Source: Monosiga brevicollis MX1 (lineage: Eukaryota; Opisthokonta; Choanoflagellata; Craspedida; Salpingoecidae). From it: 64,000 nucleotides of DNA. The stretch covers positions 271,690 to 335,689 of the forward strand of contig NW_001865065.1 in NCBI RefSeq assembly GCF_000002865.3, written 5' to 3'. The position numbers were made by a program, and so were the translations under genes. The notes beneath the pieces were generated by a model. It did not search any database, was not told where the DNA came from, and saw only the letters and a list, made by a program, of their open reading frames with translations. Below, one piece after another: positions 1 to 17,172 of this stretch; position 1 is the first letter of the stretch; every line of letters begins with the position of its first letter.

Positions 1-3000
1 CCATGATCATCGTTCAGCCCGATAATGGCCAATCCCAGATCATAGTGTGCATCCATGCTCGTATCGTCCGGATCGGTCACAACAGAACGACCATGCGGGA
101 CAATGGGCGCGCACAGACGCGTCGCACTTCCGGTTGAGGCTGCAGAGTACTGTAGAACCAGCACTCGGTTCATGATGCCGCGCGCACCGTCAAGAACTAG
201 CTCACGATCGACAAACTGGCCAAAGACACTGCCCGAAGGTGTACCATGCTTGGACGTGAGGTCGCCAGCAGCGCAGCCCAGTTGAGCATCATAGGTCCCA
301 CAGATGGAGGCCGCGTTGATCTCATCTGGATTGAAGACAGTGGTGAGTGATGCTGGGTTATCACATGAGGTAGCATCGCCAATGTACCAGGCCGTCAAGA
401 TGGACGCGTCAGTCAGTGACAGGCGCACTGAAATCTGAAGCTCGGATAAGACGTCATCGTACAAGGGCTCAAAAACCACCTCGCCAGTGAATGGCGCTTC
501 AGCATCGTCAAAGACGGCGTGTGCACCGGGTTGCGTTACAAAAGCTGGGTCACCGCCGGCCACGGTAGCAGCAGGGCGCAAGTTGGCACACACAAAAGGC
601 TTGTTGCGATAAGCCTCGTAGGGTGCGGCAAGGATAGCCGAACCAAGGAGCGTGAATGCGCGGCCCGCCACGGTGGCTGGACCGTAGAGGGACAAGAAGC
701 GGTCAGTGTAAACGTGTTGCATCTCGACCAAGTCTTCAGCCGTGGTGAAGCGGCCGGAAAAATCACCGATGGCGCAGTTGTCATCCGATTGAAAGCGCAG
801 GCTACTGCAGGTAGCCTTGGCAAAGGGGTTATACATGTTGCCGCCCGTAGAGCACGTCAGCTCAACCACGTCATCTGCGTTGGCTTGCGCCAATGCCCCC
901 GCCTGCAAAATCTGCAGACGGTCAATGCCAGCGAGGTCGTACGCATCCAGCTTGATCTGAAGGGGGGCCATGGGGCCATTCTGGGACATGGTCACATTGA
1001 CGGTGATGCCCGACTGCACGACGACACCGTAGGCCACGCGGTCCTGCAAAGGCGTCAGGGTGCCGCAAGCCACGCGTGAGCTGGCTGCAAAGTCGTTGTA
1101 CACGACAATGCTTTTGCCAGCCAATTCGGTCCAGGGCAGGTTCATGTCCGTGAACGAATACCGGTGGCGTCCCCTTGTCAAGCTGGTTAGATACCCATGC
1201 TTGCCACTCATGTCTCCGTAGCCACAGGTAGTGTGCGTTGCATCCTGACCCGGCGTACACTCGGCTGCGCCTGTTTGCGCCCAGACGTCCCTGGCCTGAG
1301 CGCAACCGCAATCGCCGTTTGCCTCGTTCAGGGACCACGCAACACTCCCACCCGAGACGCGCTGGGTCAGGTCCAGCGTCACGAAGACTTCATCCGTGGT
1401 CCAGAAGCGCGGGCGGCTAAAGTGAGCCACGCCGGCCACGGAGCCATGGAGCTTTGCACTGATGGTATCGTAGGGCCCAGTGGCGCGAATGTTAGCGCAG
1501 CTGATTTTGGCAGTGCCGCTGTTTACGAGAGCCAAAGCGCGGCCCACAATACTGTGCTGGCCGAAGAGCGTGATGTCGTTATCCACCAGGCTCATGCTGG
1601 CCACGTACTTTCCGATATCAGAGTTGTACACGGGGGTGGAGAAGCTGCCGTGTTTGCCTCGCAAATCACCGGCCGCGCAAGCGCTGGGTACCGACTGACT
1701 GCAGCTCCCGGTTCCGGCACCCGTGGGCGCGAATACATCGCCCGTATCCGCGCACATGGCCGTCGAGAGACCAGCGCCGTCAGCCAGTGTCGCCACGGCT
1801 GTCTCGACCACGCGCAGGCCGGCATTGGTGTATGTCCACGACCCACTGGCCACGTACATTTCCGCGGACACGCTCACGGGGTTTGTGGGGCCGTCTTGCG
1901 TAAACGTGACCAATCCTCGGACGTTGCCCAGGTCAAAGTAGGCCTCGGCTACGCGTGGCATCGGGGCCTCAACCAGCAGAGGCGCACACTGCACCGTGCT
2001 CCCCACCTGCAGGACCAGCGTTTTTCCTGACACCGAAGCCGACCCGCGCAGGGGTAGATCTGGATCTTGGAACACGCTTCGAGCCGTGGAGCTTGAGTCG
2101 ATGACCAAGTTGCCATGCTTCTCGGACAAAGCACCGACGTCGCACAGGACTGATCCCAGAGGTTGGCCCGCGACAAGGTCTGCACAAGGCTGCGTCGAAG
2201 AGCTTTGCGCAAGCTCGGCGCATACAGCGGCCGAGGGCTCGGAAAAGTTGGCGTGCAGGCGCACTGCATACGAGGAGCTGGTACTCAGCACGACGTCGTC
2301 AAAACACGCCAGTGCCTCGCAAGTGCCATTGGCGTTGCAGCTGACTTTGGCCTGCAAAAGCACAGCGGATGAGCCCGTGCCGGCGCAGGAGCCCGCCACG
2401 AGTTGGGCCCACATGCCATCTGCCAGCAATCGAAGCGAGTCATCTCGCAACGTCATGCGGAGACAAGAAAGGCGGCGCTCGCTTGCAATCAAAAGCGTGG
2501 CTGAGCCCGAGGGCGCATCATAAGCATACTCGGATTCAGTGAAGGCGGGGACGGTAGCTGTGAAATCGCCCGAGAGGTGCGTGACCGGCCGCCAGGGGCC
2601 GGGTCCAGCCACGGTTGTTGCTGCAGCACATGCGCTGGCATTGTAAGATTCGTCAGCCACAAACCAGGAGATGGCAGAGATTTGAGCGATGGGCGCCCGC
2701 AGAGCCACCTGGACCGTGGTGGGCGTTAATGGATAGGCGGTCGCGGATGGCTCCAGGCCCGCTGCAGCTGAGGGCTGCGTAAGTGTGACGGTGCCACTCA
2801 AGTAGCCATCAAAGGAAGCTCGTACACGGCGGGTTGGTACAGTGGCAGCCCAAGTAATGTTACCGCACGTTAGGGGGACGTCATTTTGAAGCAATACGAC
2901 TGATCGGCCCACGACAGAGTGGGCTGAGAAGAGCGAAAGGGTGTGGTCCAAAAGACCCTGTTGGTATTGCACTTCGTCAAAGGCGCCGTGTCGCCCACTA

Positions 3001-3300
3001 ATGTTACCCATGGCGCACAGCGTGGCATCATCGGCGGCACAGGTTGAGCCAATGGTCAACGGGTCATACATACGCCCCACGTAAGAGCGACCACAAGGCT
3101 CAGCCACGCTGGCCGGACCCACGGGCTGGGCATAGATGGCAAGCTTGTACATGGCGTTGGAGTTGACGTTGAGGTCCTCAATGTTCACGCGCACAGACAC
3201 GGGTGCATCGGCTGTCAACTGCTCGAAGTAAATGTGTCCCGAGATGCCCTTGCCCATGAGGTGAGCCTCGGCTTCAAGTTTGATCGAGGAGATGGGGTGG
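1..3300 (-). repeat. Tandem Cu/Zn-SOD-like protein repeats within the giant gene
   Basis: At least seven protein repeats of about 150 residues recur every 430-515 bp. Each carries a core like C-x-x-GDL-x-x-KHG followed about 25 residues later by a strand such as HSIVGRALAL. These match the GDLGNV and HCIIGRTLVV segments of SOD1. Cores lie near 250, 765, 1212, 1667, 2125, 2565 (degenerate) and 3000. Each unit also begins with a strand pair like GxVxGxVxFxQ. The paired HVH copper ligands of SOD1 are not evident in any unit. The His equivalent to SOD1 H120 is kept only in the units near 1630 and 2950. The array is similar in concept to described SOD-repeat proteins, but looks catalytically degenerate. 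Confidence 0.75.
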
Positions 3301-6300
3301 ATGCGTCCCGCTGTCAGGTTCAGATGCGCGTCCACTGGTAAATCTGCGCGCGGCAGGATGGCAGGGGCCTGCTTGGCGGCCTGGGGGAGGCGGCAGCAAA
3401 GTGCGTACACTGGCTCGCCAAGCAGGGACTCGCTACGCTCGGCGACGCCAAAAAGCGGCTCGGAGGCCAAGTTGTACGAGCGCAGAATGTAAGCATACGT
3501 CGGATTGGGGCGCACGTCCTCAAATATGGAGAGATTGCTACGCGAAACAGTGTTGGCCACAAGCCCCGCAAAGGCCGGGACCTCGGAAGCCGAGGCAAGC
3601 GTATTGGTCCAGCCCACTGTCGCGGCTCCGCTCGTCGCGTTAGGCCAGCTAGCCCGCACCTCCGCGGCACTGCATAGGGTCAGCGCCACGTTTCGGCAAG
3701 TGGATGCAGCCTCCCACCACGTGCAGCCAGCCTGGCCATCCGCACCACAGCCAATCTGCTGAATGCGCGGGCGGGTGAGAAGCGCAGGCGCCTTTCGGGC
3801 CATGAGTGTGGCGGGGGAAAAGCCGGTATTGGTGTCCTCTTGCGCGTCTTGGCGCACCGCAAGGGCCTCAACACCCTGATCAGGATACAGCACCGGGTTG
3901 TCGTTGATATCAATCAAGCGCACGGTTGTCATGGCCGCTGGGCTCTGAAATTGCTCCGTGTCCGTCACTGTCACGTAAATGTAGCGCAGGCCGCCGTCAA
4001 ACGCTTCTGCTTGGTTGGCATACGTGATTGTTTGCAGCAGCGCAACGTATTGCGCAATCGTGGCGGTTCCAGACAGGGTCAAAATCGGTGCGAGGCTGTT
4101 GTGCACGACAGAGATGCCCGAAGAACTAGCCAGCGCGGCATCCCAGGCCAAAACCTCTTGTCCACAATTGGCGGATGCTTCGGCGTAGACCTGGGCGCCC
4201 AACAGCTGTTGGCTGTTGCTTGAGTCGCTCACATACATATCCTCGTTGAAGATGTGCACTGCCTGCCCTCCCTCCACGAAGCGGTGGGGCCGCAAGTTGT
4301 TGCGGCCGGGCGCCTTGCCGTTGAGGTCAATGATGGGTGGGAGGCCAATGCTTGCCGTTGAGAGATACACGGGCGATGCGCCTTCGGAGGTCTCGTCCTG
4401 CAGGACAAAGTTGATGGTGCGAGCCTGGTTCAGGGCGGTGGGCAATACAACGGGTGCAGCCGTGGTTGTGGTGGCGTTTCCAAAGACATCATCGTCGTCA
4501 TCACCGGTGGTGTTGGTGCTGACATTGGCCAACGGGAAAACGTACTCCACCCGGCGCAAGGCTGCCTGAAAGAAGGCCAGGGGCAACACGGTCGCGTTGC
4601 GTGGTCGAAACACCAGGGTGGCAGGGCCTGCGCGTTCAACGGTGAGGTTGACAGGCAGGAATGACTCATTGAAAAGGAGCCACTCGTAGTCGATGACGCT
4701 ACTGACGGAAACGGTGGCCGCTCGCAGAACGGTGGAATCGGCGTCATCAATCACGGCGCTGGGCGCCAGCGTGACTGGGCTTCCAAGGTCTTCGTACAGC
4801 ATAAAGGCCTCATAGGCATTGCTGCCAAAGTCCACTTGCGGAGGGTCATCAGCCAATTGCACACGGACCTCGGTGGTGCTGATCTCGCCGAGACGGTCCT
4901 CGTCGCGGGCCTGAAAGTTGATGACGCGAGCTGTTGGGTTTGGTTCGTCGGCATCGTTGAAGTAGCGGAGGGTAGGGAGCACGGCAGCAAAGATGGTGAG
5001 CGGATGGCGTTCATTAGTGGGTGAATAGATGCGGATGGTGGAGGTGTCAGCCGTGGCGATCGTTTCGGCCGTGAGCGGAGAGTCGTCGACATTGACAACA
5101 ATGCGCTCGGCATCGCCATCCAAGCGGTTGGTAAGGGTCACAGTAATCTCTTCAATGCTGATGCCGTCGAGGTAGTTGAGACCAACATAGGAGTCGTTGA
5201 CCAAGAGCACGCCTTGAACGTTGCCTTCCAGAAACGTGGTGGCGTAGTCTCCACCGTCCTCGGTGAGCAAAATGTTGGGCAAGTCACCGCTCTGATACAC
5301 ATCCATGGCCGCGGTGGCAATATGCTGGCTGTATGGCCCGGTGTGGTAGTACGTGGACGTGTCCGCACCCGACAAACCAGCGAGATCCTCGCCGTTGGAC
5401 ATGTCCCAAGCACGGACAAGCAAGTAGGGCTTGATGGAAGCAGGCAAATACTCGCCCGCGGCATTGATTTCCGTGTTGAAGTTTGGGTTGGGCTGGTATC
5501 GAATGCGACAGTCATGGGCGAGCAGAGTGGCAAAGGTTGAGCTGGGCTCTGTGACTTGGCGCTGCAGGACCGTGTCATAGCCACCGTCAAAGAAAAACCA
5601 GGACCAGTCATCAGCCGACGCGGCGAGGACATCATTGGCACCAAGTCCACGGGTATCGCAAGTCCAGGACCACACACCCTCACTCTGAAACAGACCCACG
5701 ACGGCCACGCCCATGGTGCCGTTCACAATGAGGTTCGTGTCAACGTCTGTGACAAAATACTGATATTCTACCACGTTGGGCAGAGGGTTGGTGTCAATGC
5801 GCAGCAGGTCAATGGCAGCAAAGCCCTTGCTGCGTCCAATGTCAGCAGGAGGGTCCTCGTCCTCAAACATGTAGGGAGCGACGATGCCATCCTCAAGAAT
5901 GGGAGCGTCGTTGATGGCCTCGACCTCCAGGGAGCCGGTGGCATGATAGGCACCGGCAGCGCCCGTCGCATCACTGGCCAATGCCCAGACAACCAATACC
6001 GTGCCGTGATAGTCAGCGTCACCGTAGAACCGAAAATTGGTGGGTGCGGCCGCCGAGCCGGTGGGAACGAGGCGGGGAAAGTTTGAACCCAACGCGATCC
6101 AGTCGGAGGCACCGGGCAAGCGGTACTCAAAGCGACCGTTTGATTGATTGGCCCCAAGAAAGGCGAGGCGCGAGGGCATGGCGGGCCGAAGGCCCACGCT
6201 CACCGTTTCATACTGGTGCTCAAAAAGGATGGTGGCCATGTCATGCATATTGAGAATTTGGCAGCGACCAAGGGTGTCCTCCTCCTGGGAAGCCAGCGCC

Positions 6301-9300
6301 ACGCGATAGTCCTGGCGAAAGCGGAGGTAGGCTGCATCGTAGATGGCCTGGGCGGCCAGCAAGGTCTTGGACCCGTTGAGAAGCAGACCCGACGCATTGA
6401 GGTTGCAAGCATCTAGAGTGGGTCGGTCGCGCACGTCAACCAAAATCACGACAGTGGGGTCAAAGGCATCATAAAGCTCGAGTACAGTCGCGTTGACGAG
6501 GGGAATGCGTAGTTCCACGATCGGGTACAGGGCGTCAAGGGTGGCCGGGTCCGAAACGTTGTAAATGACGCTCGAATTGATGGTGCCATCGACGCTGACA
6601 ATCTCTCGGAGGCTGGCATCAAAATCAATGCGCAGGGTGTCGTTGACGAAGGCATAGACGCGGATGGGGTCAGTGGCGTTGGAGGCGGGTCCCGGCAAGC
6701 CAGTGGTAGCGTTGGCACCGAGCGTGGTCGGAAGAAGCGTGGTGGTACTGAGAACGGATAGAAGGTCGACGATTTCCGTGACCACGGGGGCTGAAAAGTT
6801 GAAGCAGGGAAACTCGCGGGGGGTCTCCACCACGGTGGTAGCAGCGCTGGTGGAATTGCTGGGGCAGGTAATGCACTGCCGGTCAGAGGTCGCGGTGGGA
6901 GCAGCCACCTCGTAGTCGTCGCCCAGCGCACAAGGCCCCGTGACGTTGATGCACGCGCGGTCCGTGGTGGGTGTGGGTGCCTGGACCTGGTACTGCTCGG
7001 CAGTACATACGGTGAGATCCGTGCACACGCGGCGGCGAATGCGAGTTTCTGCCTGCGACTCAAACTCGTCAGCAGCACAGGTGACGGGCACTCGGGTGAT
7101 GCTGCGGAAGATGCGGCTCGCTGGACGAGGGCTGTACGCGTAAGCGCCATCGAGACTGTCGCGTGCCGTAATGTTGGGGTCGACATAACCCTGCGAAGCC
7201 TGCGCCGCCGCGGTCAAGGCGCCACCGTTAATCACTGGGATGGTCGAGTCGACAATCATAACTGTTCTGTTGATGGGTTCGGCTTCGTTGAATGCCATAT
7301 CTCGGACGCTGTAGACTACCGTGAATGTGCTAAAGGCCGGGGCTCCGGTGTCCACGCGTCCGGCCGAGTTGACGCGAGAGGGGCGTGTCACACCACTGTA
7401 GGTGAAGCCGTTGAGGTCGTTCTGGTCAAGGGCATCATAAGCGGTGGCCCCGGGATCAATCCAAGTGGTGGCGCCCTCCCACGTGCAGAATTCGCCACAT
7501 GTGTCGGTGGTCGTGAGGGTGAGAACGGGGGGCTGGGTGTCAACAATCACAACGACGCGGTCTTTGCGGCTCTGCGTATCCTGGCGACCACTGGGGTCAC
7601 GCACGCTGTACTTGAGGGTCCAGCGGGTGCCAGCTGGGGCCATGGAGGTGACGGCGTTGAAGTTAGTCAGGCCACAGCCAGTGCTTTTGATGCAATTGCC
7701 AGCCTGGCGAACGGAGATGAGGCTGACATCATTTGAGAGATCACCGTAATATTCGTCCGTGGCAATGGCCCACGGATCGTAAAAAAAGGAGGCACCTTCC
7801 AGATTGATGGTGGCGTTACCAACGAGTTGAAGATCAGGTGCCTTGCTGTCATCCACGGTGACGTAGCGCACCACCTGACGGGCGGAGACACCGTTGTTAT
7901 CTTCGACCGAGTAGCGAATCGTAAACGTAGCAGGGAGGATGGAGGGGCGCATGTCGACTTCGCTGTTGACAAACATCGAGGCCGTGAGGTCACCATCCAC
8001 GATATCTTCGGCGGTGGCACCTCGGGGGCACCAGCGACACAGGGCGTTGGCGGTGCATTCATTTTCCGAGAGGTGGTCGAAGCACGGGTGCGTGGTCAGG
8101 ATGCAAGCGTCGTTGATCCACTGGCAGCCAGAGCTGGCACGCGCCTCGCAGTAGGCCTTGGCCTGCGCGTCGTTGAGACTGCCCCCGTCTTGCGGCTCAA
8201 GACAGACGTTGTTTTCGGGCTGAACACCACAGTAGGTGTCAACGTACTGCTCGCCTGCTTCGACGGTGATGCGTTGCGGGCCACAGAGGTTGATGAGGGG
8301 CGGCTTGGTGTCCTTGACAATGAGGAGGCGGGAGACAGTGCCAGGACTGGTGCTGACGCGATCGAGCGCGACATAAGTGATGGTGAGGTTTTTGACATCC
8401 TTGTTGTTGAGAACAAGACGGCCATCAACAAAGTCACCGTCGGGAATGAGGCGGCAAATGTCGCCCGGATTACCAAGGAATGTAATTGACCCATCGTCCT
8501 CGACTTGGATGTCGCATTCAGCGCCGAGGTAGAGGAGATCTCCATCGACCGTGTCGGTGCCAGTTGCACCGGGGTCAATAAACTCGTCACCACCCTCCAA
8601 TTCCATGACTGAGTTGCCACAGAGGCTCACCTGAGGCACATTGGTGTCCTCAACTATCACAAGGCGCTCGCAGGAGCTGAGGCCCAGTGCGTTGCGCGCG
8701 GCAATCTGCGCTGCGGTGGTATCTTCCCAAAGGCAGGTGGGGTTGGCGTCGCTGGCCGTTCTATATCGGATGGTATAATTGCCCATGCGATAGGTGATGC
8801 CAGGCAGGCTGTCATAGCCAGGGACGGAAAAGGGCTGGTTGGTGGGCACGGGGGCCACGGCTCGGTCCACAAAGTCGCCCGCATCGATATCGGTGCCGGG
8901 GTCAGGGCAGGCATTGATCAGGCGCACACGCCGAGTCAGAGTGTTGGTTTGGCAGAGTGTCTCATCCCCGGCCACGCTCGAGGCACACACCGCGGTAGGA
9001 GCTGTGATGGAGCAGGAACCTGCGGAGTTGCAGTTGAGGGGAATGCCACTCACGCGGACATTCAGCCCATTGTTGGATTTGGAGTTGACTCGTGCGCAAA
9101 AAGGGGTCACAGGTGCACTGTTGGAGCAGAGCGTGGCCAACGTGAGAGGCACACCTCCCGACACGTGCGTAATAGGATCGCCCTCAATGTAGATTGTGTC
9201 TGCGAGCCAAAGCGAGAACGACATGGGGTGAGGACAGCGGCCGATCGCGGGTGGAAGGTTTGCCCATGGTCGGGCGGATGGAAAAAGACGAGGCAAGGGA

Positions 9301-9428
9301 TGAACGAAGAGAAGGCAGCGCCACCAACCAGCATGGCAGCCAAGCGGTGCCGAAATCAGAGCCAGAGCGGCTAGCAGCACCAATCGCGGCCTGTGCACGC
9401 CGGACGCGGCAACGCCGGGCCGCGGCAT
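1..9428 (-). CDS. Giant secreted/surface protein: DUF5011-like, cadherin-like and SOD-like repeats (3' partial)
   Basis: One minus-strand frame is open without a stop from about 9340 to the left edge, so the protein exceeds 3,000 residues and its C-terminus lies outside the window. The predicted start is ATG at 9428. It opens a typical signal peptide (hydrophobic LVLLAALALISA, cleavage near GCHA). A phase-1 intron at 9328-9200 then joins exon 1 to DTIYIEGD. Order of parts: DUF5011/bacterial-Ig-like units with the pattern E-G-x-x-(F/Y)-x-DPGA-T-A-x-D near 8600-7200; a TNFR-like cysteine stretch near 7080-6860; cadherin/CSPG-like beta-sandwich segments with INDAP and DINDNP linkers near 5950-3900; then seven or more Cu/Zn-SOD-like units from about 3300 to 1. 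Many N-glycosylation sites occur. A 9.2 kb exon without introns is unusual beside its intron-dense neighbours. Function unknown; an extracellular adhesive or matrix role is inferred. Confidence 0.85.
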   Translation of the reverse strand, partial: MPRPGVAASGVHRPRLVLLAALALISAPLGCHAGWWRCLLFVHPLPRLFPSARPWANLPPAIGRCPHPMSFSLWLADTIYIEGDPITHVSGGVPLTLATLCSNSAPVTPFCARVNSKSNNGLNVRVSGIPLNCNSAGSCSITAPTAVCASSVAGDETLCQTNTLTRRVRLINACPDPGTDIDAGDFVDRAVAPVPTNQPFSVPGYDSLPGITYRMGNYTIRYRTASDANPTCLWEDTTAAQIAARNALGLSSCERLVIVEDTNVPQVSLCGNSVMELEGGDEFIDPGATGTDTVDGDLLYLGAECDIQVEDDGSITFLGNPGDICRLIPDGDFVDGRLVLNNKDVKNLTITYVALDRVSTSPGTVSRLLIVKDTKPPLINLCGPQRITVEAGEQYVDTYCGVQPENNVCLEPQDGGSLNDAQAKAYCEARASSGCQWINDACILTTHPCFDHLSENECTANALCRWCPRGATAEDIVDGDLTASMFVNSEVDMRPSILPATFTIRYSVEDNNGVSARQVVRYVTVDDSKAPDLQLVGNATINLEGASFFYDPWAIATDEYYGDLSNDVSLISVRQAGNCIKSTGCGLTNFNAVTSMAPAGTRWTLKYSVRDPSGRQDTQSRKDRVVVIVDTQPPVLTLTTTDTCGEFCTWEGATTWIDPGATAYDALDQNDLNGFTYSGVTRPSRVNSAGRVDTGAPAFSTFTVVYSVRDMAFNEAEPINRTVMIVDSTIPVINGGALTAAAQASQGYVDPNITARDSLDGAYAYSPRPASRIFRSITRVPVTCAADEFESQAETRIRRRVCTDLTVCTAEQYQVQAPTPTTDRACINVTGPCALGDDYEVAAPTATSDRQCITCPSNSTSAATTVVETPREFPCFNFSAPVVTEIVDLLSVLSTTTLLPTTLGANATTGLPGPASNATDPIRVYAFVNDTLRIDFDASLREIVSVDGTINSSVIYNVSDPATLDALYPIVELRIPLVNATVLELYDAFDPTVVILVDVRDRPTLDACNLNASGLLLNGSKTLLAAQAIYDAAYLRFRQDYRVALASQEEDTLGRCQILNMHDMATILFEHQYETVSVGLRPAMPSRLAFLGANQSNGRFEYRLPGASDWIALGSNFPRLVPTGSAAAPTNFRFYGDADYHGTVLVVWALASDATGAAGAYHATGSLEVEAINDAPILEDGIVAPYMFEDEDPPADIGRSKGFAAIDLLRIDTNPLPNVVEYQYFVTDVDTNLIVNGTMGVAVVGLFQSEGVWSWTCDTRGLGANDVLAASADDWSWFFFDGGYDTVLQRQVTEPSSTFATLLAHDCRIRYQPNPNFNTEINAAGEYLPASIKPYLLVRAWDMSNGEDLAGLSGADTSTYYHTGPYSQHIATAAMDVYQSGDLPNILLTEDGGDYATTFLEGNVQGVLLVNDSYVGLNYLDGISIEEITVTLTNRLDGDAERIVVNVDDSPLTAETIATADTSTIRIYSPTNERHPLTIFAAVLPTLRYFNDADEPNPTARVINFQARDEDRLGEISTTEVRVQLADDPPQVDFGSNAYEAFMLYEDLGSPVTLAPSAVIDDADSTVLRAATVSVSSVIDYEWLLFNESFLPVNLTVERAGPATLVFRPRNATVLPLAFFQAALRRVEYVFPLANVSTNTTGDDDDDVFGNATTTTAAPVVLPTALNQARTINFVLQDETSEGASPVYLSTASIGLPPIIDLNGKAPGRNNLRPHRFVEGGQAVHIFNEDMYVSDSSNSQQLLGAQVYAEASANCGQEVLAWDAALASSSGISVVHNSLAPILTLSGTATIAQYVALLQTITYANQAEAFDGGLRYIYVTVTDTEQFQSPAAMTTVRLIDINDNPVLYPDQGVEALAVRQDAQEDTNTGFSPATLMARKAPALLTRPRIQQIGCGADGQAGCTWWEAASTCRNVALTLCSAAEVRASWPNATSGAATVGWTNTLASASEVPAFAGLVANTVSRSNLSIFEDVRPNPTYAYILRSYNLASEPLFGVAERSESLLGEPVYALCCRLPQAAKQAPAILPRADLPVDAHLNLTAGRIHPISSIKLEAEAHLMGKGISGHIYFEQLTADAPVSVRVNIEDLNVNSNAMYKLAIYAQPVGPASVAEPCGRSYVGRMYDPLTIGSTCAADDATLCAMGNISGRHGAFDEVQYQQGLLDHTLSLFSAHSVVGRSVVLLQNDVPLTCGNITWAATVPTRRVRASFDGYLSGTVTLTQPSAAAGLEPSATAYPLTPTTVQVALRAPIAQISAISWFVADESYNASACAAATTVAGPGPWRPVTHLSGDFTATVPAFTESEYAYDAPSGSATLLIASERRLSCLRMTLRDDSLRLLADGMWAQLVAGSCAGTGSSAVLLQAKVSCNANGTCEALACFDDVVLSTSSSYAVRLHANFSEPSAAVCAELAQSSSTQPCADLVAGQPLGSVLCDVGALSEKHGNLVIDSSSTARSVFQDPDLPLRGSASVSGKTLVLQVGSTVQCAPLLVEAPMPRVAEAYFDLGNVRGLVTFTQDGPTNPVSVSAEMYVASGSWTYTNAGLRVVETAVATLADGAGLSTAMCADTGDVFAPTGAGTGSCSQSVPSACAAGDLRGKHGSFSTPVYNSDIGKYVASMSLVDNDITLFGQHSIVGRALALVNSGTAKISCANIRATGPYDTISAKLHGSVAGVAHFSRPRFWTTDEVFVTLDLTQRVSGGSVAWSLNEANGDCGCAQARDVWAQTGAAECTPGQDATHTTCGYGDMSGKHGYLTSLTRGRHRYSFTDMNLPWTELAGKSIVVYNDFAASSRVACGTLTPLQDRVAYGVVVQSGITVNVTMSQNGPMAPLQIKLDAYDLAGIDRLQILQAGALAQANADDVVELTCSTGGNMYNPFAKATCSSLRFQSDDNCAIGDFSGRFTTAEDLVEMQHVYTDRFLSLYGPATVAGRAFTLLGSAILAAPYEAYRNKPFVCANLRPAATVAGGDPAFVTQPGAHAVFDDAEAPFTGEVVFEPLYDDVLSELQISVRLSLTDASILTAWYIGDATSCDNPASLTTVFNPDEINAASICGTYDAQLGCAAGDLTSKHGTPSGSVFGQFVDRELVLDGARGIMNRVLVLQYSAASTGSATRLCAPIVPHGRSVVTDPDDTSMDAHYDLGLAIIGLNDDH

Positions 9429-11535
9429 GAGGCGTGGTTTTGGCGCACAGCAAAGCAGCTGCAGCGCGCAATCAAACTCGAGCTGCCGAAGGGACGAGTC
9501 AGCGCAAGTGCCTGACACGAGTAATGGGTAGCCACACACGGGCTAGTCCTGCGGTGTGTTCAGGCACTCAAAATCGCTGTGCATCCAGGAAGAATTGGGA
9601 ACGTGCAACAGCGGGTCAGAGGAAGGTTGTTGCGGACCACTGTCGCAAGCAAGCACGCCAGGGGGCAGGAATAAGCACGTCCACCCAGGAGCAGACAAGA
9701 CGTCGCGGGCAGCCCCGGGAATTGGGGGCGTGGTGTTTGCTTTGTCGAGTAGTTGAGGGAGCTCGGTCACTCGAGCGCTGGGCGCAGAAACCCAGACGAT
9801 GGCATTGGTGAGTCGATGCCTTTTGATATGGTGTTGCAATCGGTGCGTTTCTGGTCCTCGGAGGTGTGTGGTTGCACAAACGGGAGAGCGGCTCCTCGAG
9901 GTCCTGACCGTGGGGGCAGAAAGCAGGGGGGGGGAAAGGGGGCAAGTGGTACAGAATCGCACAAGACAAGGGGATGAGCCGGGTCCGTTCAAGCATTGAC
10001 GTGAGCGCGTCAAAGCGCCAGTTGATGGATGATGTGGTTCTGGGCGCGTGATGAGCCGTTGGCATCGCACGCCTCAAGGCAAAACCCAGACCACGGCCAA
10101 GAGGACGGAGACGAAGAAAACAACCAAGGATGACCACGCCAACGTGCACCGTGCCTTGGGTGACCGGTTAAAAGTCTGGTCGGCCCCGAAAGCTGGCACG
10201 ATGACGCGACGACGACGGGGGCGGAGCGCGCGACACACTCACCGCGCACGTCAGAGAGAGAGAGGAGGGGAAGAGAGTGAATGAGTTGAGAGATAAGGGT
10301 GTCAGATGAAGTAGGAGTCAGAGGAAGGATGAGTTCTGGGGCGTTGTAGCAGAGGAGCGATGCGATGTCAAGAGCGGATTTAAGGGTAGAAAAAGCGGAT
10401 TTCAGAGATGCGATGCGATGGTGGTTATACACCAAGAGACGCTTAAATGACGCATGCTTTTCTCAGAGACGCCTCACGAAAACAGCTTATTGTTCAGACA
10501 ATGGTTTCAGTGCGGCTGTCTGCCAGCCTTCAGCACCTGCCAAGCTGGAAGAGAGATGAAGCGTGAATTCTGTTACACTTCAAGTCCACTGAACGCGGAA
10601 AGGGTTAGGGGATGTCACCCAAAACGTTAGTGTGTTACATCCCATGTATACTGGAATCATGATGATGATCCAATGATCGGAAACGGATCATGCCCAATGA
10701 TGTTCTCGACCTGATGATGAGTTCAGGTAGAGGTCGAGACACACGGGCGGCGGGCTAGCGACTCGCCACTGGTCAACCGGGGGGAGGGGTCTTCAGGGCT
10801 TCCAAAAAGGTGGCGACGACCGTCCGTTCATTGCCTTGCGTAGGTCTTCGTCCGCCTGCTGTCAGCGGGGATTTCACATGGTAGCAACGCGTCTGACATC
10901 TTGGATTTTGTCAGACGGCATTGCATCTGACAATATAATCTGACAACATTGTGCTCGGTGGGGGTAAAAAACAAACGAGTTTCCAGACGGAAAGCTATCC
11001 CCAAACGCAGGAACGTTCCGAGCGTCTTGACAGAGCCTAGTTCCACAGAACTCCTCTTTCATGACATGTTCAAGCCCGGCCGTCGATATCACCACGTATC
11101 AATACATAAACTCGGCAAGCAAACATTATCATCACGACGTAAGCCAATCAAGAATCAACATAAACCTCGGCGCGTATATATCCCACTAGAAGGTGCAGCA
11201 GGAGCCTACGGATGGGTGTGCGCCCAACTCCTATCTTGTCCAAGCCTATGGTGTTGCATGCAACCGCTTCATTCCGTTTTTGCTTTCGTTTTTGCTTTCT
11301 TTTTTTTTGTTTTATTTTCCCAACGAGCGAGCTCCACGGCTGCCGTTTTGATCCACCGCTTCAATCGGTTGCGGATCAAGTGGTGTGCCGTCGTCCCTGT
11401 CCGCCGCCGCTGGTCCAACGAGGACCCGGTCGCCGGAAGTTCACAGAGTCAAGCGGCTTCACTCACACAGGCATTAGCACCTTGGCGCTCGAGCGCACAA
11501 GTGTGTCAAGCAGCAACCCCACCCCACACTCCACA
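9429..11535. promoter_or_regulatory. Divergent intergenic region between the two giant surface genes
   Basis: This 2.1 kb spacer separates two genes transcribed away from each other, so it should hold both promoters. The long open frames in it have shadow-like composition and no recognisable domain. It contains a G run near 9930, AG-rich sequence near 10250-10280, a polypyrimidine tract at 11280-11320, and a cluster of TCTGACA motifs near 10890-10945. No TATA box could be assigned with confidence. Confidence 0.5.
10890..10945. repeat. Inverted and direct TCTGACA motif cluster
   Basis: CGTCTGACA at 10890-10898 is mirrored by its perfect inverse at 10909-10917, giving 9-bp arms and a 10-nt spacer. 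Two further direct TCTGACA copies follow at 10926-10932 and 10939-10945. Four copies within 56 bp in a divergent promoter region suggest a transcription-factor site; the factor is unknown. Confidence 0.55.
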
Positions 11536-14500
11536 ATGGCAGTGCGGTCGGTGTTGGTGGCCCTGGTGGCTTTGATGGCCGCTGTGGCCATGGCCGAAGT
11601 GCCGCGCATCCGCGTCTCGCAAACCCAGTTCTCCATGGACGAGGGTATGGCGGTGCAAATCACGTTCTCCCTGACTCAGCCCTTCGTTTGCCCTCCCGAT
11701 GAGGAATGTACCGTCACGGTGGCCCTCACCAATGCCCACCCGGACTCGCTCTACCTCGAGACGTGCCACGTCAAGTGGCAGCAACACGAATGGCACCAAG
11801 ATCGTGTCATCCAAGTTCGTGCCACCGAAGACTTTGTGGACGACGCTGGTGCGTGTTTGTGTCCCCCCCCCCTGTTTCGGTTTGGATCCTTCCACACTCT
11901 TTTGCCAGCTTCTCACATCCTTTTTTGGACGGCTATTGAATGCAACATTTGCTCTTTTGCTCATGAACAGAGGAAACCTTCCTCCTCATCACCGAGCCTG
12001 CCGTCTCCAACTCCAAGTTTTACACCCAGTTCAACCCTGCTGATATTCAGTTTACCACCAAGCAGCGCCCCACCGCCGCCTGCTCCGCCACCGGCGATCC
12101 CCACTGTACGCTTCGTGTGCCTCACATCTCTCCCTGTCAACATTTGCCGAGTTCTTGCTGTGCATCCTTTTGCTCATGTCCATTCCACCGATGATGTTAT
12201 GCCAACCTGTCCCCCCCCGCTCCTCGATCTGGCAGATCGCACCTTTGACGGTCGCTACTATCACATTCGCCCCAACGGCAAGGTCGTGTTTTACAAGTCA
12301 AAGGCCGAAAACCGTGTTTTTGAGGTGCAGACGGACATGTACCGCTTCAATGGTCGCCCCGCCGTCCAGTGTGGTCTTGCTGCGCGTGAGGGCAACGATG
12401 TCGTCGTTATTAGCTGGTGCGCCACCGGTCACAACATTGAATATCGCCTCTCCTGTGGATCGACCGAGTGCGATCAGGGCAAGTGGCCCCGCGTTGGCGT
12501 GACGAGCAGCTCCAATCCCACGTACACCATCGACTTTAAGTCTGGTGCCCAGGTCAAGTTTGACGTCCATTACTGGAGCGCCATCGGCCGCCGCTACATG
12601 AACCTGTACGTCAAGGCCCCCGGCGTGGATAAGGGTCTTACTGCTGGTGTATGTGGCAACAACGACAACAACAACAATAACGACGTTGCGGTTGGTCATG
12701 ATCAGTGGATCGAGAACCTGGCCACCCTCAGCAGCGAGCAGCGCACCCTCGAAACCGACCTCTTCAACTGGTACCCGGACCGTAACAACCTGGAGACATC
12801 TCCATATTACGCTGATGCCGAGGCTTGCCCCGTGCCCGCGGATCCCTTTATCCGCCCCATCCTCAACCAACCCGACGTGGAGGACATTACCGACCTGCTC
12901 AAGGACAAGCGTGTCACCAACGACGACAACCTTCTGGAGGGACTCGACTTTAACCTTGACGATTTTGTCCTCGTCAACCCCAACCTGAATCGCGCCGAGG
13001 CCCTCCTTCGTTGCGAGACAATCCGATCCAGCCTCGTGGCCCAGGCCTGCGTCGATAAGTTCCCCAACCTGGATCTCCAACCCTTTATTGAGAATTGCGC
13101 AGAGGATCTCGTCGCCACGGGCGGTGACAACGAGTTTATTGAGGTGGCCGTCGCGGATTTGCAAGACGAATGCGCCGACCTCGGCAACCGAAACATGTCC
13201 ACCTGGGAACTGGACAACAACGGCGAGCGCGTCCCCTCCAAGGACCTCCAAAATGTCATGTGCCCCACCTCCACGGAACAGCCCTGCTCTGGCAACGGCC
13301 AGTGCGTCGAGACCAAGTGCCACTGCAACGCGGGCTTCCTCGGCGCCGACTGCTCCGTCAACCCGAGCTTGCCCCCCGTCGTTGAGTCGGCGGATCGTCC
13401 TCTCTGCGATGGCCGTGGTCTGCTCGGCTGCGACATTGAGGTGGCGATCATCGGCTCCAACTTTTACTCGAACGGCTCCAACGTTCGCTGCATGTTTGGC
13501 GACCAAGTCACGTCCGGAACCGTCCTCGGCTCGGTGGAGGTGCGCTGCCGCCTGCCCACGAACCAGCACCGCTCGGCGCCTGCGCGCAGCGTTCCCCTTC
13601 GTGTGTCCACGGATGGTGGCCAAACCTACTCTGCCCTGAACCCGGCCGTCACCTACACCTGGTATGACTCTGTGTGTGAGATTTGCAACGCCACCAGCTG
13701 CTCCCCCAACCCAGCCTCGTGCTTTATTGATGGTCAATGCTACGTGGCCGAACATGCCCGCCCCGACAACGTCTGCCAGCGCTGCAAGCCCGCCTTGGCG
13801 CAAACGGCCTGGAGCTACGACCACTCGGCCAACACGGCATCATGCGGTCCCGTCTTTGCCGCTGGCTCGTACACGGGCCTCATTGTTGCCTCGGCCGTGG
13901 CTGACACTCTCCTCGTCACCGTCGATGCCACCAACCCCCTACTTCAGTCAGACCCGAGCCACGTCATCACCTACTCGATTCAGGAGGGCGACGACGCTGA
14001 GTACTTTAAGATCGACCCCACCAGCGGCGAGGTTCGCCTGACGCAGGACATTGTCGTGAGCGAGTCCTTTGCCCTTAGCTTCCGGGGTTACATGATTGTC
14101 GTCGCCACCGACGAGCAGGGCCAAACCGCCTACGTCCCCGTGCACGTGCGCCTCCTGGCCGCCAACGAGCAGCCCCTGTTCGCTCGCGATACGCTCAACT
14201 TTACCTTCCCCGAGTCCACGCAGCCCGGTTACACGATTGGTCAGATCACCGCCACCGATACGGACGCCTTCTCCAACCTCGAGTACGCTTTCATTGTGCA
14301 GGAGGCCGGCTTTGCGGGCGCCGTCACCGTGAACCGTACCACGGGCCAGGTCACGCTGAACCAGGCTCTCAACTACGAAGAGAAGAGTCACTACCGCTTT
14401 GAGCTTCAGGCCCGCGACGACGGCGGTGCTTCCGACTTTGTTGAGGTGCGCTTTTTCGTCACGGATGTCAACGAAGCCCCCACCGACATTCTGATCAACT

Positions 14501-17172
14501 CGACTCAAGTCCCGGAGAACGGCGTGGACGTTCTTGTCGGTGTCCTCTCTGCCGTGGACGAGGACTTTGTTGACAGCCACACCTTTACCGTCCTTGCTGG
14601 TGACTTTGCCGTTGCTGACGGCAAACTCTACACAACCAAAGCTTTTGACTACGAGAACCCCGCTGAGCGTCAGACCTCTGTGACCCTGCGCGCCACCGAC
14701 AAGGGGGGCCTCACCTTTGACAAGACGCTGACCATCACCATCACCAACGTCAACGAGCCGCCCACCGACATCACGCTTGATCAGACCACCTTCGCGGAGA
14801 CGCAGATGCGTCCCGGAGAGGATCTGGCCATCATTACCGTGACAGACCCGGATGTGAATGATGTCATTGCTTGTGCCCTGGTTGACGATGATGAGGGTCG
14901 TTTTGCCGTTCTGGGGCAAGTGCTGAAGCTCGTCAAGGCCTTCAACTACGAGGCCGCCGCCGCGCATGCCCTCACCATTGCCTGCTTTGATGAGGCAGGC
15001 GCACAGGTTGATCGCTCGTTTGTTATCACGGTCACGGACGAACAAGAGGCTCCCCAAAACATTGTTCTCAACCAAGTTGTTGTGGCTGAGGATGCTCCCG
15101 TGGGCACTAAGGTCGGTGTCATCACCGCCGAGGATCAAGACGCTGATGCTGGTGCCATGACCTTTGCCATGGCCGATCCTGAAGCGCCCTTTGAGCTCAA
15201 GAACACCCAGTGTGGTCTTGCTGCGGGCCGCATGGTGTGCAGCGTTGACGTCTTTACCACTGGGCCCCTGGACGCCGATCTTGATGGTGGAGTCATGTCC
15301 ATCCTCGTCCGAGCCACCGACAACAACGACATGGCTGCCATGAAGGAGCTGCAGCTCAAGGTTGAGAATGTGAATGAACCTCCCTCGGGTCTCAACTGGG
15401 TTGGTCAGACTCCCACTGTGCGTGAGGATGCCGCTGACGGTGCCGTTGTCGGCCGTCTCGTGGTGGCCGATGAGGACGCCGTCAACGCCGAGAACTCACC
15501 TCGCTACACCTTTGAGCTGCTCAACACGGACGGCGTGTTTGGCTTCCGTACCACGTCCAACGCCGACGCCCGCCGCCGCAGCAGCAGCAACGCCAACCGC
15601 GTCGAAGCTTATGCCGCCGAGGTTGTGTTGCTGGACCACAGTCTGCTCAACGCCGAAACCATGCAGGGCTACATGCTCTCCGTCCGCGTCACGGACGAGG
15701 GCGGTCTGTCAGCGGCTTTGGACGCACCCATCACCATTGAGGACGAGCCCCTGCGCGTTGTGTTCAAGGCCACCAATCTGGCCGTGGCCGCGGTCGCAGA
15801 GAACGAGCCTGCGCAGACCGTTGTGGGACAACTTGCGGTTGCCGGCCTCAATGCCGGCCAGAGTGCCACCTCCTTTGCTTTGGCTAGTTCCTCTCACCAT
15901 GCCGATGCGTTTGTGGTCCGCGGTCAAACGCTGCGCACCCTGCGTCCCATCGACGCCGAGTACGAGTTCACTTTGGCCAAGATCCTTGTGGCGTTTACGC
16001 TCAACACGGGCGAAACCAAGCAGAGCTACGTTGAAGTGGCCGTCACCGACGTGGCCGAGCCTGCCGCCTTTTACAAGACGCCCCATCTGCACTCGGGTTC
16101 ACCCGACACGGACGTGCGCATCAACCAGACAAGCCCCGCCAACGACCTCATGTCCTTCTTTGCCCTCGACCCAGAAGGTGACGCTTTTACGTTGAGCGTC
16201 TCGAGCAACAATGACGCTTTGACCGATATTTTGAGCATTGATCAACAACCGGGCAGCCAGCAACACGTCCTCTCACTCTTGAGCGCCCCTACCCAGGCCA
16301 GCCTGCGCCCGGGCAACTACAAGGTGACGATCACAGCCAAGTCGTCTGACGGTTTGGAGTCTTCGCATCAGCTGACGCTCCGCGTGGCTGGCTCGGCTGA
16401 TCCCGATGCCGCCCGCGACGCCTCCACCGGCACTGGCAGCAACAGCCAGGCTAGTACGGGCATGATTGGCGTTATTGTTGGTTGCGTGGCCGGTCTTCTC
16501 CTGGTCGTGCTCGTTGTTCTCGTTGTCCTGCGCCGCCGCCAGCGTCGCGTCACCATGGATGCCAAATCAACTTTCCAGCACAACGAGGCATTTGATAATC
16601 CCACATTTGTGGATGCCCAGCAGACGGTGGCCTTTGTGCCCGGCGTGTCTAACCCCCTTTATGAGTGGTATGCTCCCGATCTCACGCGCCAAGACGCCGC
16701 GGGCGAGCTCACCGATCGCCCCGATGGCGCCTTTGTCGTCCGCGACTCAAAGGCTACGCCCGGCTGGCACATTCTTGGCGTCAAGGCCGGCAATCAGGTC
16801 TTGCACGAGAAGATTCGCCGGGATGAGGAAGGCCTGTACGAGCTGGTCCCATCAAACAACGAACCCCAGCCCGCCTTTTACTCGCTGCCCGATTTGATTC
16901 ACTACTATGGCAGTCAACGCGAGGAGGTGCCGTTTACTCTGGACTTTTCTGGCTTTAGCAACCCCATGTACGCAGTGGTTGCCACCTCAGCCGGCGAGTC
17001 TTCCAGCAATGGTCACTATGCTGCTGCCGGTCCTTGGATGCGGGATATGAACGCGCCCATGGTGCCCCTCAAGGAATCACAGATGCACGCTGTCCAGCAG
17101 CTGGCCGGTGGCGAGGACATTTACACCAATGCCCAGGAAGCCAACGAAGCCCTTTCCAGCACGCTGGCCTAA
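11536..17172 (+). CDS. Cadherin-SH2 receptor (vWD, EGF, IPT, cadherin repeats, TM, SH2)
   Basis: Predicted exons are 11536-11848, 11971-12105 and 12236-17172, both introns in phase 1, giving about 1,794 residues. ATG 11536 opens a signal peptide ending near AMAEVP. Splicing recreates the vWD opening GDPHYRTFDGRYYHI at about resid 145. An EGF-like module (CSGNGQC...CHCNAGFLGADC) follows near 495, then an IPT/TIG-like fold near 530-615 and a Cys-rich segment near 617-685. About eight cadherin or cadherin-like repeats (687-1540) end in linkers such as DVNEAP and NVNEPP with DxD/DxDA motifs. The transmembrane helix is near 1558-1582. The tail carries an SH2 domain at about 1626-1708 with its phosphotyrosine-binding Arg in FVVRDS (about R1652), flanked by NPxY-like sites (NPLYEWY, NPMYAVV). 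It likely couples adhesion to tyrosine-kinase signalling. Confidence 0.93.
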   Translation: MAVRSVLVALVALMAAVAMAEVPRIRVSQTQFSMDEGMAVQITFSLTQPFVCPPDEECTVTVALTNAHPDSLYLETCHVKWQQHEWHQDRVIQVRATEDFVDDAGACLCPPPLFRFGSFHTLLPASHILFWTAIECNICSFAHEQRKPSSSSPSLPSPTPSFTPSSTLLIFSLPPSSAPPPPAPPPAIPTVRFVCLTSLPVNICRVLAVHPFAHVHSTDDVMPTCPPPLLDLADRTFDGRYYHIRPNGKVVFYKSKAENRVFEVQTDMYRFNGRPAVQCGLAAREGNDVVVISWCATGHNIEYRLSCGSTECDQGKWPRVGVTSSSNPTYTIDFKSGAQVKFDVHYWSAIGRRYMNLYVKAPGVDKGLTAGVCGNNDNNNNNDVAVGHDQWIENLATLSSEQRTLETDLFNWYPDRNNLETSPYYADAEACPVPADPFIRPILNQPDVEDITDLLKDKRVTNDDNLLEGLDFNLDDFVLVNPNLNRAEALLRCETIRSSLVAQACVDKFPNLDLQPFIENCAEDLVATGGDNEFIEVAVADLQDECADLGNRNMSTWELDNNGERVPSKDLQNVMCPTSTEQPCSGNGQCVETKCHCNAGFLGADCSVNPSLPPVVESADRPLCDGRGLLGCDIEVAIIGSNFYSNGSNVRCMFGDQVTSGTVLGSVEVRCRLPTNQHRSAPARSVPLRVSTDGGQTYSALNPAVTYTWYDSVCEICNATSCSPNPASCFIDGQCYVAEHARPDNVCQRCKPALAQTAWSYDHSANTASCGPVFAAGSYTGLIVASAVADTLLVTVDATNPLLQSDPSHVITYSIQEGDDAEYFKIDPTSGEVRLTQDIVVSESFALSFRGYMIVVATDEQGQTAYVPVHVRLLAANEQPLFARDTLNFTFPESTQPGYTIGQITATDTDAFSNLEYAFIVQEAGFAGAVTVNRTTGQVTLNQALNYEEKSHYRFELQARDDGGASDFVEVRFFVTDVNEAPTDILINSTQVPENGVDVLVGVLSAVDEDFVDSHTFTVLAGDFAVADGKLYTTKAFDYENPAERQTSVTLRATDKGGLTFDKTLTITITNVNEPPTDITLDQTTFAETQMRPGEDLAIITVTDPDVNDVIACALVDDDEGRFAVLGQVLKLVKAFNYEAAAAHALTIACFDEAGAQVDRSFVITVTDEQEAPQNIVLNQVVVAEDAPVGTKVGVITAEDQDADAGAMTFAMADPEAPFELKNTQCGLAAGRMVCSVDVFTTGPLDADLDGGVMSILVRATDNNDMAAMKELQLKVENVNEPPSGLNWVGQTPTVREDAADGAVVGRLVVADEDAVNAENSPRYTFELLNTDGVFGFRTTSNADARRRSSSNANRVEAYAAEVVLLDHSLLNAETMQGYMLSVRVTDEGGLSAALDAPITIEDEPLRVVFKATNLAVAAVAENEPAQTVVGQLAVAGLNAGQSATSFALASSSHHADAFVVRGQTLRTLRPIDAEYEFTLAKILVAFTLNTGETKQSYVEVAVTDVAEPAAFYKTPHLHSGSPDTDVRINQTSPANDLMSFFALDPEGDAFTLSVSSNNDALTDILSIDQQPGSQQHVLSLLSAPTQASLRPGNYKVTITAKSSDGLESSHQLTLRVAGSADPDAARDASTGTGSNSQASTGMIGVIVGCVAGLLLVVLVVLVVLRRRQRRVTMDAKSTFQHNEAFDNPTFVDAQQTVAFVPGVSNPLYEWYAPDLTRQDAAGELTDRPDGAFVVRDSKATPGWHILGVKAGNQVLHEKIRRDEEGLYELVPSNNEPQPAFYSLPDLIHYYGSQREEVPFTLDFSGFSNPMYAVVATSAGESSSNGHYAAAGPWMRDMNAPMVPLKESQMHAVQQLAGGEDIYTNAQEANEALSSTLA

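What the first reader, a model, noticed from the sequence alone, without database searches (positions are those of the whole stretch)
1..9428. Giant protein joining DUF5011-like, cadherin-like and SOD-like repeats
The sequence shows a single frame open for more than 9 kb, with a signal peptide, bacterial-Ig-like units with DPGA-TA-D signatures, cadherin-like linkers and at least seven SOD-like units in tandem. SOD-repeat proteins and DUF5011 proteins are each known, but I know of no described protein combining them. This is the best candidate in the window for an undescribed extracellular system.
Basis: partly seen in the sequence, partly recalled or inferred. Interest (0 to 1): 0.8.

Follow-up and report, generated by a model that had tools for sequence, protein, structure and literature searches.

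The report
Copper-dead SOD-repeat receptor with SH2 tail
A choanoflagellate, a single-celled relative of animals, carries a giant surface protein in which six superoxide-dismutase-like barrels that have lost their copper-binding residues sit outside the cell on a tyrosine-signalling tail, which suggests that an antioxidant enzyme fold was reused as part of a receptor.

The parts
9329..9428 (-). exon 1: ATG and signal peptide (P0001 residues 1-33)
   Evidence: sequence; agrees with gene model P0001; second-highest hydropathy window at residue 17
9200..9328 (-). in-frame intron of 129 nt, GT...AG
   Evidence: 43-codon offset between the open frame and P0001; GT and CAG at its ends
7095..8672 (-). 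N-terminal block of DUF5011/HYR-type Ig-like units (P0001 about 210-735)
   Evidence: Pfam PF16403; alignments to P0002, P0004, P0006
6765..7067 (-). Cys-rich stretch (P0001 about 745-845), unclassified by Pfam
   Evidence: sequence; no Pfam family at E<=1 here
3861..5342 (-). cadherin_5/calsyntenin-C-like stretch (P0001 1320-1813); weak
   Evidence: 26-29% identity to P0008 and P0012, which carry Cadherin_4/5, Big_9 and CLSTN_C; own Pfam scan empty; structure model failed, pLDDT 37
2844..3287 (-). SOD unit 1 (P0001 2005-2152)
1968..2843 (-). SOD unit 2, interrupted by an insert (about 2169-2627)
   Evidence: complementary half matches of 0.6 and 32 bits; low-pLDDT insert at model residues 218-375
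1470..1967 (-). SOD unit 3 (P0001 2445-2610), best Pfam match
1035..1469 (-). SOD unit 4 (P0001 2611-2755)
   Evidence: HMM 37.5 bits
555..1034 (-). SOD unit 5 (P0001 2756-2915)
   Evidence: HMM 34 bits
75..554 (-). SOD unit 6 (P0001 2916-3075)
   Evidence: HMM 29 bits
1..74 (-). continuation; the rest lies outside the window at contig C30 about 267142-271689: DUF5011-like units near 271089-271391 and 269631-270011, transmembrane helix 269109-269177, tyrosine repeats about 267.4-268.6 kb, SH2 267199-267435
   Evidence: locus L009, P0001, genome searches
11212..17172 (+). divergent neighbour: EGF, TIG, cadherin repeats and C-terminal SH2, with a sub-cut-off VWD match
   Evidence: its FSNPMYA motif fits JGI gene model 11339 as described in PMC3082566

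Best explanation
A type I transmembrane, kinase-less receptor. The roughly 3,900-residue ectodomain joins DUF5011/HYR Ig-like stalks with six SOD barrels that have lost copper and serve as a binding or spacing scaffold instead of an enzyme. When a ligand or a neighbouring surface clusters the protein, receptor tyrosine kinases or Src-like kinases phosphorylate acidic-flanked tyrosines in the 79-residue tail repeats. The C-terminal SYK-like SH2 domain then binds phosphotyrosine on the same or a neighbouring tail, so receptors assemble with each other and with other SH2 proteins. Supported by computation: gene continuity, domains, SOD fold, loss of copper ligands, transmembrane segment, tyrosine repeats, SH2 with the FLVR arginine. 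Inferred: ligand binding, phosphorylation, and self-binding of the SH2 domain.
For: One open frame with DUF5011 on both sides of the SOD array. One clear hydropathy peak besides the signal peptide (3.04 at residue 3939). Pfam SH2 E 3.2e-7, over its cut-off; best solved match SYK, E 3e-13 for a chain with two SH2 domains, FLVR aligned to SYK FLIR. 16 of 20 tail tyrosines before the SH2 have two or more D/E in the four residues before them, against 11 of 135 in the ectodomain (P 2e-11; by unique motif 10 of 14 against 11 of 135, P 2e-7). 50 N-glycosylation sequons and 94 Cys in the 3,903-residue outside against 3 and 2 in the 620-residue inside fit this topology. No copper-ligand histidine in any unit but Cys pairs kept. 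SOD fold. Same body plan (DUF5011, transmembrane segment, tyrosine motifs, SH2) in other loci: 8 of 18 DUF5011 loci, this one included, have a same-strand SH2 within 8 kb downstream, expected 0.012 per locus (tails of the seven others). A kinase-tailed and an SH2-tailed receptor share a 4.3-kb stretch at 97.7% DNA identity. In print: M. brevicollis RTKB2 tail repeats of about 80 aa are phosphorylated and then bind an SH2 domain (PMC3584944, passages); RTKC8 kinase appears to prefer hydrophobic -1 and acidic +1 around Tyr (PMC10263333, passages), which 7 of 20 tail tyrosines have against 6 of 135 in the ectodomain.
Against: No ligand, expression or phosphorylation data. The tail joins the SH2 exon only across an intron proposed by the gene model. 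A degenerate repeat copy with a stop lies in that gap, so the join could be a modelling or assembly choice. Two of 18 DUF5011 loci carry kinases, and eight show neither SH2 nor kinase by Pfam within 8 kb. No match to the repeat part of the tail was found outside this gene, so it is not the published RM2 by sequence. Tyrosine is not more frequent in the tail than outside (3.5% against 3.4%). In PMC3584944 a complex of RTKB2 tail and MbSrc1 was not detected by co-immunoprecipitation in cells.
Confidence: 0.55

Rival explanations
1. A membrane-anchored extracellular superoxide dismutase (an ordinary CSRP/SOD4) with extra adhesive domains: copper in the SOD units removes superoxide at the cell surface.
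For: A six-unit Cu-only-SOD-type array like those of many animal CSRPs; oyster CSRP is an active SOD (PMC13017621).
Against: 0 of 24 copper-ligand positions are His and E110 is lost in every unit, while two other genes in this genome keep intact sites in at least nine units.
Confidence: 0.04
2. A giant adhesin whose ectodomain matters mechanically (prey capture, attachment, matrix), the tail being only a cytoskeletal or turnover anchor.
For: Size, HYR/DUF5011 and weak calsyntenin-like modules; HYR might be adhesive (PMC10263333).
Against: Tail tyrosine motifs and SH2 recur across DUF5011 receptors and this SH2 keeps its FLVR arginine.
Confidence: 0.25
3. The SOD array is a decaying copy of a CSRP gene captured by a DUF5011-SH2 receptor and has no role of its own.
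For: Weak unit scores (0.6-62 bits against 121-180 for units with intact sites in the paralogues), all copper ligands lost, one unit split by an insert; no SOD units at ten other DUF5011 loci.
Against: The frame stays open through the array and the disulphide Cys are kept in 6 of 6 units; the model predicts confident barrels outside the insert; Cu-less CSRPs are expressed in arthropods and tardigrades (PMC13017621).
Confidence: 0.12
4. An assembly or gene-model artefact joins separate genes.
For: The SH2-tail join rests on one gene model across a degenerate repeat; whether that model comes from an independent assembly is not known.
Against: SOD, DUF5011 on both sides and the transmembrane segment lie in one uninterrupted frame; DUF5011-transmembrane-SH2 recurs, in six other loci within one single frame.
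Confidence: 0.04

Closest known systems
[quoted passage not shown] SOD4/CUSR), reviewed in PMC13017621
   Same: Tandem extracellular Cu-only-SOD-type barrels (most animal members six, by the review) with conserved disulphides; Cu-less members are known.
   Different: No copper site in any unit, embedded in a 4,580-aa receptor with DUF5011, transmembrane segment, tyrosine repeats and SH2; of 120 CSRP-type hits listed (316 found, length-limited) none shows SH2 or DUF5011 in its precomputed domains.
M. brevicollis receptor tyrosine kinases RTKB/RTKC (PMC3584944, PMC10263333)
   Same: Cys-rich and HYR-type ectodomain, single transmembrane helix, tail repeats of about 80 aa with acidic-flanked tyrosines (RTKB2 RM2).
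   Different: No kinase domain; SH2 at the C terminus; tail repeat not matched elsewhere in the genome; SOD array.
Transmembrane cadherin-SH2 protein, JGI model 11339 (PMC3082566), apparently the divergent neighbour
   Same: Predicted transmembrane protein with SH2; no kinase domain in its Pfam scan.
   Different: Cadherin/EGF/TIG ectodomain, no SOD or DUF5011 match.
Other M. brevicollis DUF5011-transmembrane-Tyr motif-SH2 proteins (C12, C21, C38, C41, C47 x2, C55; this report)
   Same: Same order: DUF5011, transmembrane segment, tyrosine motifs, one or two SH2.
   Different: No SOD units: an HMM that gives the giant 263 bits has no match better than E 0.33 in the ten loci fetched (the Sod_Cu search missed the giant's own units and is no evidence). 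Different tyrosine motifs, such as YDQPNA, YEEPVVQ, YQQPGG.

Membership tests
CSRP/SOD4 (Cu-only SOD repeat protein) | four or more tandem SOD-fold repeats | tested here: met
   six units by HMM; model and PDB matches (the VIA rows cover units 1 and 3)
CSRP/SOD4 (Cu-only SOD repeat protein) | conserved intramolecular disulphide in each repeat | tested here: met
   both Cys present in 6 of 6 units (split unit 2 read as U2+U3); the bond itself was not tested
CSRP/SOD4 (Cu-only SOD repeat protein) | intact Cu site (four His) in at least some repeats; Cu-less members are accepted in the review | tested here: not met
   0 of 26 letters at the four columns over seven pieces, two gaps; 0 of 24 read as six units
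CSRP/SOD4 (Cu-only SOD repeat protein) | E110/D113 signature (many but not all members) | tested here: not met
   E in 0 of 6 units; D in 4 of 6
CSRP/SOD4 (Cu-only SOD repeat protein) | absence of Zn site and of loop VII | not tested
   -
DUF5011 / Bact_surface_Ig-like (PF16403) | Pfam match over curated cut-off | tested here: met
   102 bits, cut-off 27, five stretches
SH2 domain proteins | Pfam SH2 over cut-off and FLVR arginine | tested here: met
   30.8 bits, cut-off 21; FLVR aligned to SYK FLIR
SH2 domain proteins | phosphotyrosine binding | not testable with these tools
   needs a binding assay
M. brevicollis receptor tyrosine kinase | tyrosine kinase domain | tested here: not met
   no kinase family at E<=1 in P0001; no listed kinase match at C30 262-290 kb (that list is cut)
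Cadherin (PF00028) | cadherin domain | tested here: not met
   no cadherin family at E<=1; only indirect similarity via P0008 and P0012

The most novel reading that the evidence does not exclude
The CSRP/SOD4 fold was turned, in a unicellular relative of animals, from a copper enzyme into the ligand-recognition part of a phosphotyrosine receptor. The receptor is a substrate and SH2 partner for kinase receptors with related DUF5011/HYR ectodomains, giving a two-component system of a kinase receptor and a kinase-less SH2 receptor built on shared ectodomains.
Probability: 0.35. Interest if true: 0.8.

Novelty: new variant of a known kind. Interest (0 to 1): 0.6.

Why it matters
It links two families treated separately in the papers seen here: the SOD-repeat proteins, implicated in tadpole tail regeneration (PMC13017621 passages), and the very large phosphotyrosine network of choanoflagellates. 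If the array is a binding module, Cu-less CSRPs in animals (tardigrades, insects) may have recognition roles too. The DUF5011-Tyr-SH2 receptors, and the near-identical ectodomain on a kinase and on an SH2 tail, make a concrete and testable question about how kinase-less receptors arose before animals.

Tried and rejected
Other giants with the SOD array: a search with residues 1960-3080 as query returned only P0001 itself among 1,355 scored candidates; candidates outside 0.55-1.75 of 4,580 aa and distant relatives are not covered. Fold of the middle part (P0001 1280-1995): the model failed (mean pLDDT 37.4, three sequences), so no fold is claimed. The published RM2 repeat: a tail query had no match outside this gene over its repeat part, only over its SH2 part, so common descent with RM2 is not shown; RM2 itself was not fetched. 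NCBIfam gave only sub-cut-off matches. The genome-wide Sod_Cu search found ten matches in two other genes and missed the giant's own units, so it is not used as evidence of absence; one search was run for that instead. Which animal CSRP repeat each unit resembles: five of six units scored best with the R1 or R2 profile, the two positions that mostly lack HxH (7 and 4 of 34 proteins with it), one with R3 (34 of 120 listed proteins used); R1/R2 profiles carry fewer histidines, so this is only a hint. The VIA second look covered units 1 and 3; units 2 and 4-6 rest on HMM and model confidence. An active extracellular SOD was considered and rejected because no copper ligand remains. The count used lists copied by hand (37 of 37; 19 of 114, those on contigs near DUF5011 loci; 4 of the listed matches). 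Manning 2008 and a second paper looked up by DOI are not held, so earlier description of HYR-SH2 receptors cannot be excluded. Novelty in print was checked only by ten listing searches, passages of six papers and one full section.

Full report
Where it is. The window is G000:C30:271690-335689 of a 39.5-Mb, 57-contig genome. It is Monosiga brevicollis: a second gene of the same genome (contig C42, 929,013 bases) is 100% identical to MONBRDRAFT_37745 of M. brevicollis MX1 on a contig of the same length.

The observation. The minus-strand frame opens at ATG 9428 and runs off the window. On neighbouring DNA (L009) it stays open to contig position 268631, 4,162 codons in all. A gene model in the protein database, P0001 (4,580 aa, source hidden, contig recorded as 614,053 bases against 605,470 for C30), matches every residue of the window part from residue 35 on, with one offset of 43 codons: a 129-nt GT...AG intron after the signal peptide. 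Pfam on P0001 gives PF16403 (102 bits), Sod_Cu (65 bits) and SH2 (30.8 bits), all over their cut-offs.

Relatives. The C42 gene is a classical CSRP: its search gave 316 proteins, 120 listed, at 32-43% identity except the self-hit; most of those that bear a name are animal proteins (cusr, SOD4, molluscan and arthropod SOD-like). In the precomputed domains of those 120, only PF00080 appears, apart from one with an EGF domain. The review of CSRPs (PMC13017621; outline, passages and section 8 read) describes 4-12 repeats, Cu-less repeats and wholly Cu-less CSRPs; its main text does not hold the words choanoflagellate or Monosiga. A 2023 paper (PMC10416458, one passage) reports SOD4 members in choanoflagellates. 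So SOD repeats in this group are known. Their presence in a receptor with DUF5011 and SH2 was not seen in the listings.

The part outside the window. After more DUF5011-like units come a transmembrane helix (P0001 3938-3960; hydropathy 3.04, the only strong peak) and a 620-residue tail with 22 tyrosines, 20 of them before the SH2. A 237-bp tandem repeat (3.6 copies) encodes EDTYDTV, EDVYDGV and EELYLAQ motifs. Two or more acidic residues precede 16 of these 20 tyrosines, against 11 of 135 in the ectodomain. The copies are not independent; counted by unique motif it is 10 of 14 (P 2e-7). The tail ends in an SH2 domain whose best solved match is SYK (E 3e-13, a chain with two SH2 domains) with the FLVR arginine kept. 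Between the first stop and the repeats the DNA holds a degenerate repeat copy with a stop; the gene model removes it as an intron. This join is the weakest link.

A family of such receptors. Genome searches found 37 PF16403 matches, grouped into 18 loci, 114 SH2 matches and 169 kinase matches (lower bounds by the tool's own statement, and the kinase listing is cut). An SH2 lies on the same strand within 8 kb downstream in 8 of 18 DUF5011 loci, this one included; a kinase in 2 of 18; neither in 8 of 18. The naive expectation is 0.012 SH2 per locus, binomial P 1e-11, ignoring clustering of SH2 genes. I fetched ten of the other loci: all seven with a downstream SH2 show a transmembrane segment followed by tyrosine motifs; six of the seven hold DUF5011, transmembrane segment and SH2 in one frame, while in the C55 locus the SH2 lies in another frame beyond a withheld stretch. 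In the two C33 loci Pfam gives no SH2, but by eye one tail ends in an SH2-like GSYLIRH stretch. The C55 and C38 loci share a 4.3-kb stretch at 97.7% DNA identity; C55 carries tyrosine motifs and SH2, C38 a tyrosine-kinase tail. None of the ten loci has SOD units by an HMM that gives the giant 263 bits (best E elsewhere 0.33).

How it most likely works. In M. brevicollis, RTKB2's tail repeats of about 80 residues are phosphorylated in vitro and then bind the MbSrc1 SH2 domain, although no complex was found by co-immunoprecipitation in cells (PMC3584944, passages). RTKC8, a kinase with HYR ectodomain, appears to prefer a hydrophobic residue before and an acidic one after the tyrosine (PMC10263333, passages); 7 of the 20 tail tyrosines fit, against 6 of 135 outside. 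I therefore propose a kinase-less receptor: ectodomain clustering, phosphorylation of the tail by kinases in trans, and SH2 binding to its own or a neighbour's tail. The SOD array would be scaffold or ligand-binding surface, in the spirit of what the review suggests for Cu-less CSRPs by comparison with oyster dominin. All functional steps are inferred.

Neighbourhood. The divergent gene at window 11212-17172 encodes cadherin repeats and a C-terminal SH2. [quoted passage not shown] A further SH2 match lies at C30:265771 on the other strand, so three SH2 matches fall within 23 kb.

Limits. No expression, interaction or selection data; no orthologue of the giant was found; the middle region is unmodelled; whether P0001 comes from an independent assembly is not known; the key 2008 survey of M. 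brevicollis tyrosine-kinase signalling could not be read.

Noticed in passing
L019 (C55:2281000-2290500) and L021 (C38:697500-706499): A 4.3-kb stretch 97.7% identical in DNA encodes the same DUF5011 ectodomain on a tyrosine-kinase tail (C38) and on a tyrosine-motif plus SH2 tail (C55): apparently a recent swap of signalling tails.
   Followed up: partly
L012 (C18:310000-319900): Another SOD-repeat gene, apparently split over four frames, with 16 SOD-unit matches over 10 bits (some may be halves split by introns), six of them over 100 bits, and a hydrophobic segment near its end; perhaps more repeats than the 12 reported for Capsaspora.
   Followed up: partly
P0110 (EukProt, jgi/Bigna1): A Sod_Cu repeat protein with five matched stretches; its label suggests Bigelowiella (recalled), which would lie outside the opisthokonts, where the review places CSRPs.
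   Followed up: no
L022 and L023 (C33:521.5-544.5 kb): Two DUF5011-transmembrane genes 98.3% identical over 4.85 kb; one tail ends in an SH2-like GSYLIRH stretch that Pfam did not report.
   Followed up: no
window 11212-17172: Divergent cadherin-SH2 gene; with the giant and an SH2 match at C30:265771 this gives three SH2 matches in 23 kb.
   Followed up: partly
P0006 (EukProt transcript, 2,897 aa): TSP1-like repeats by eye, 17 PF16403 stretches, a hydrophobic segment by eye and a tyrosine-rich tail without an SH2 match: the DUF5011 plus tyrosine-tail plan exists in another eukaryote of unstated name.
   Followed up: no
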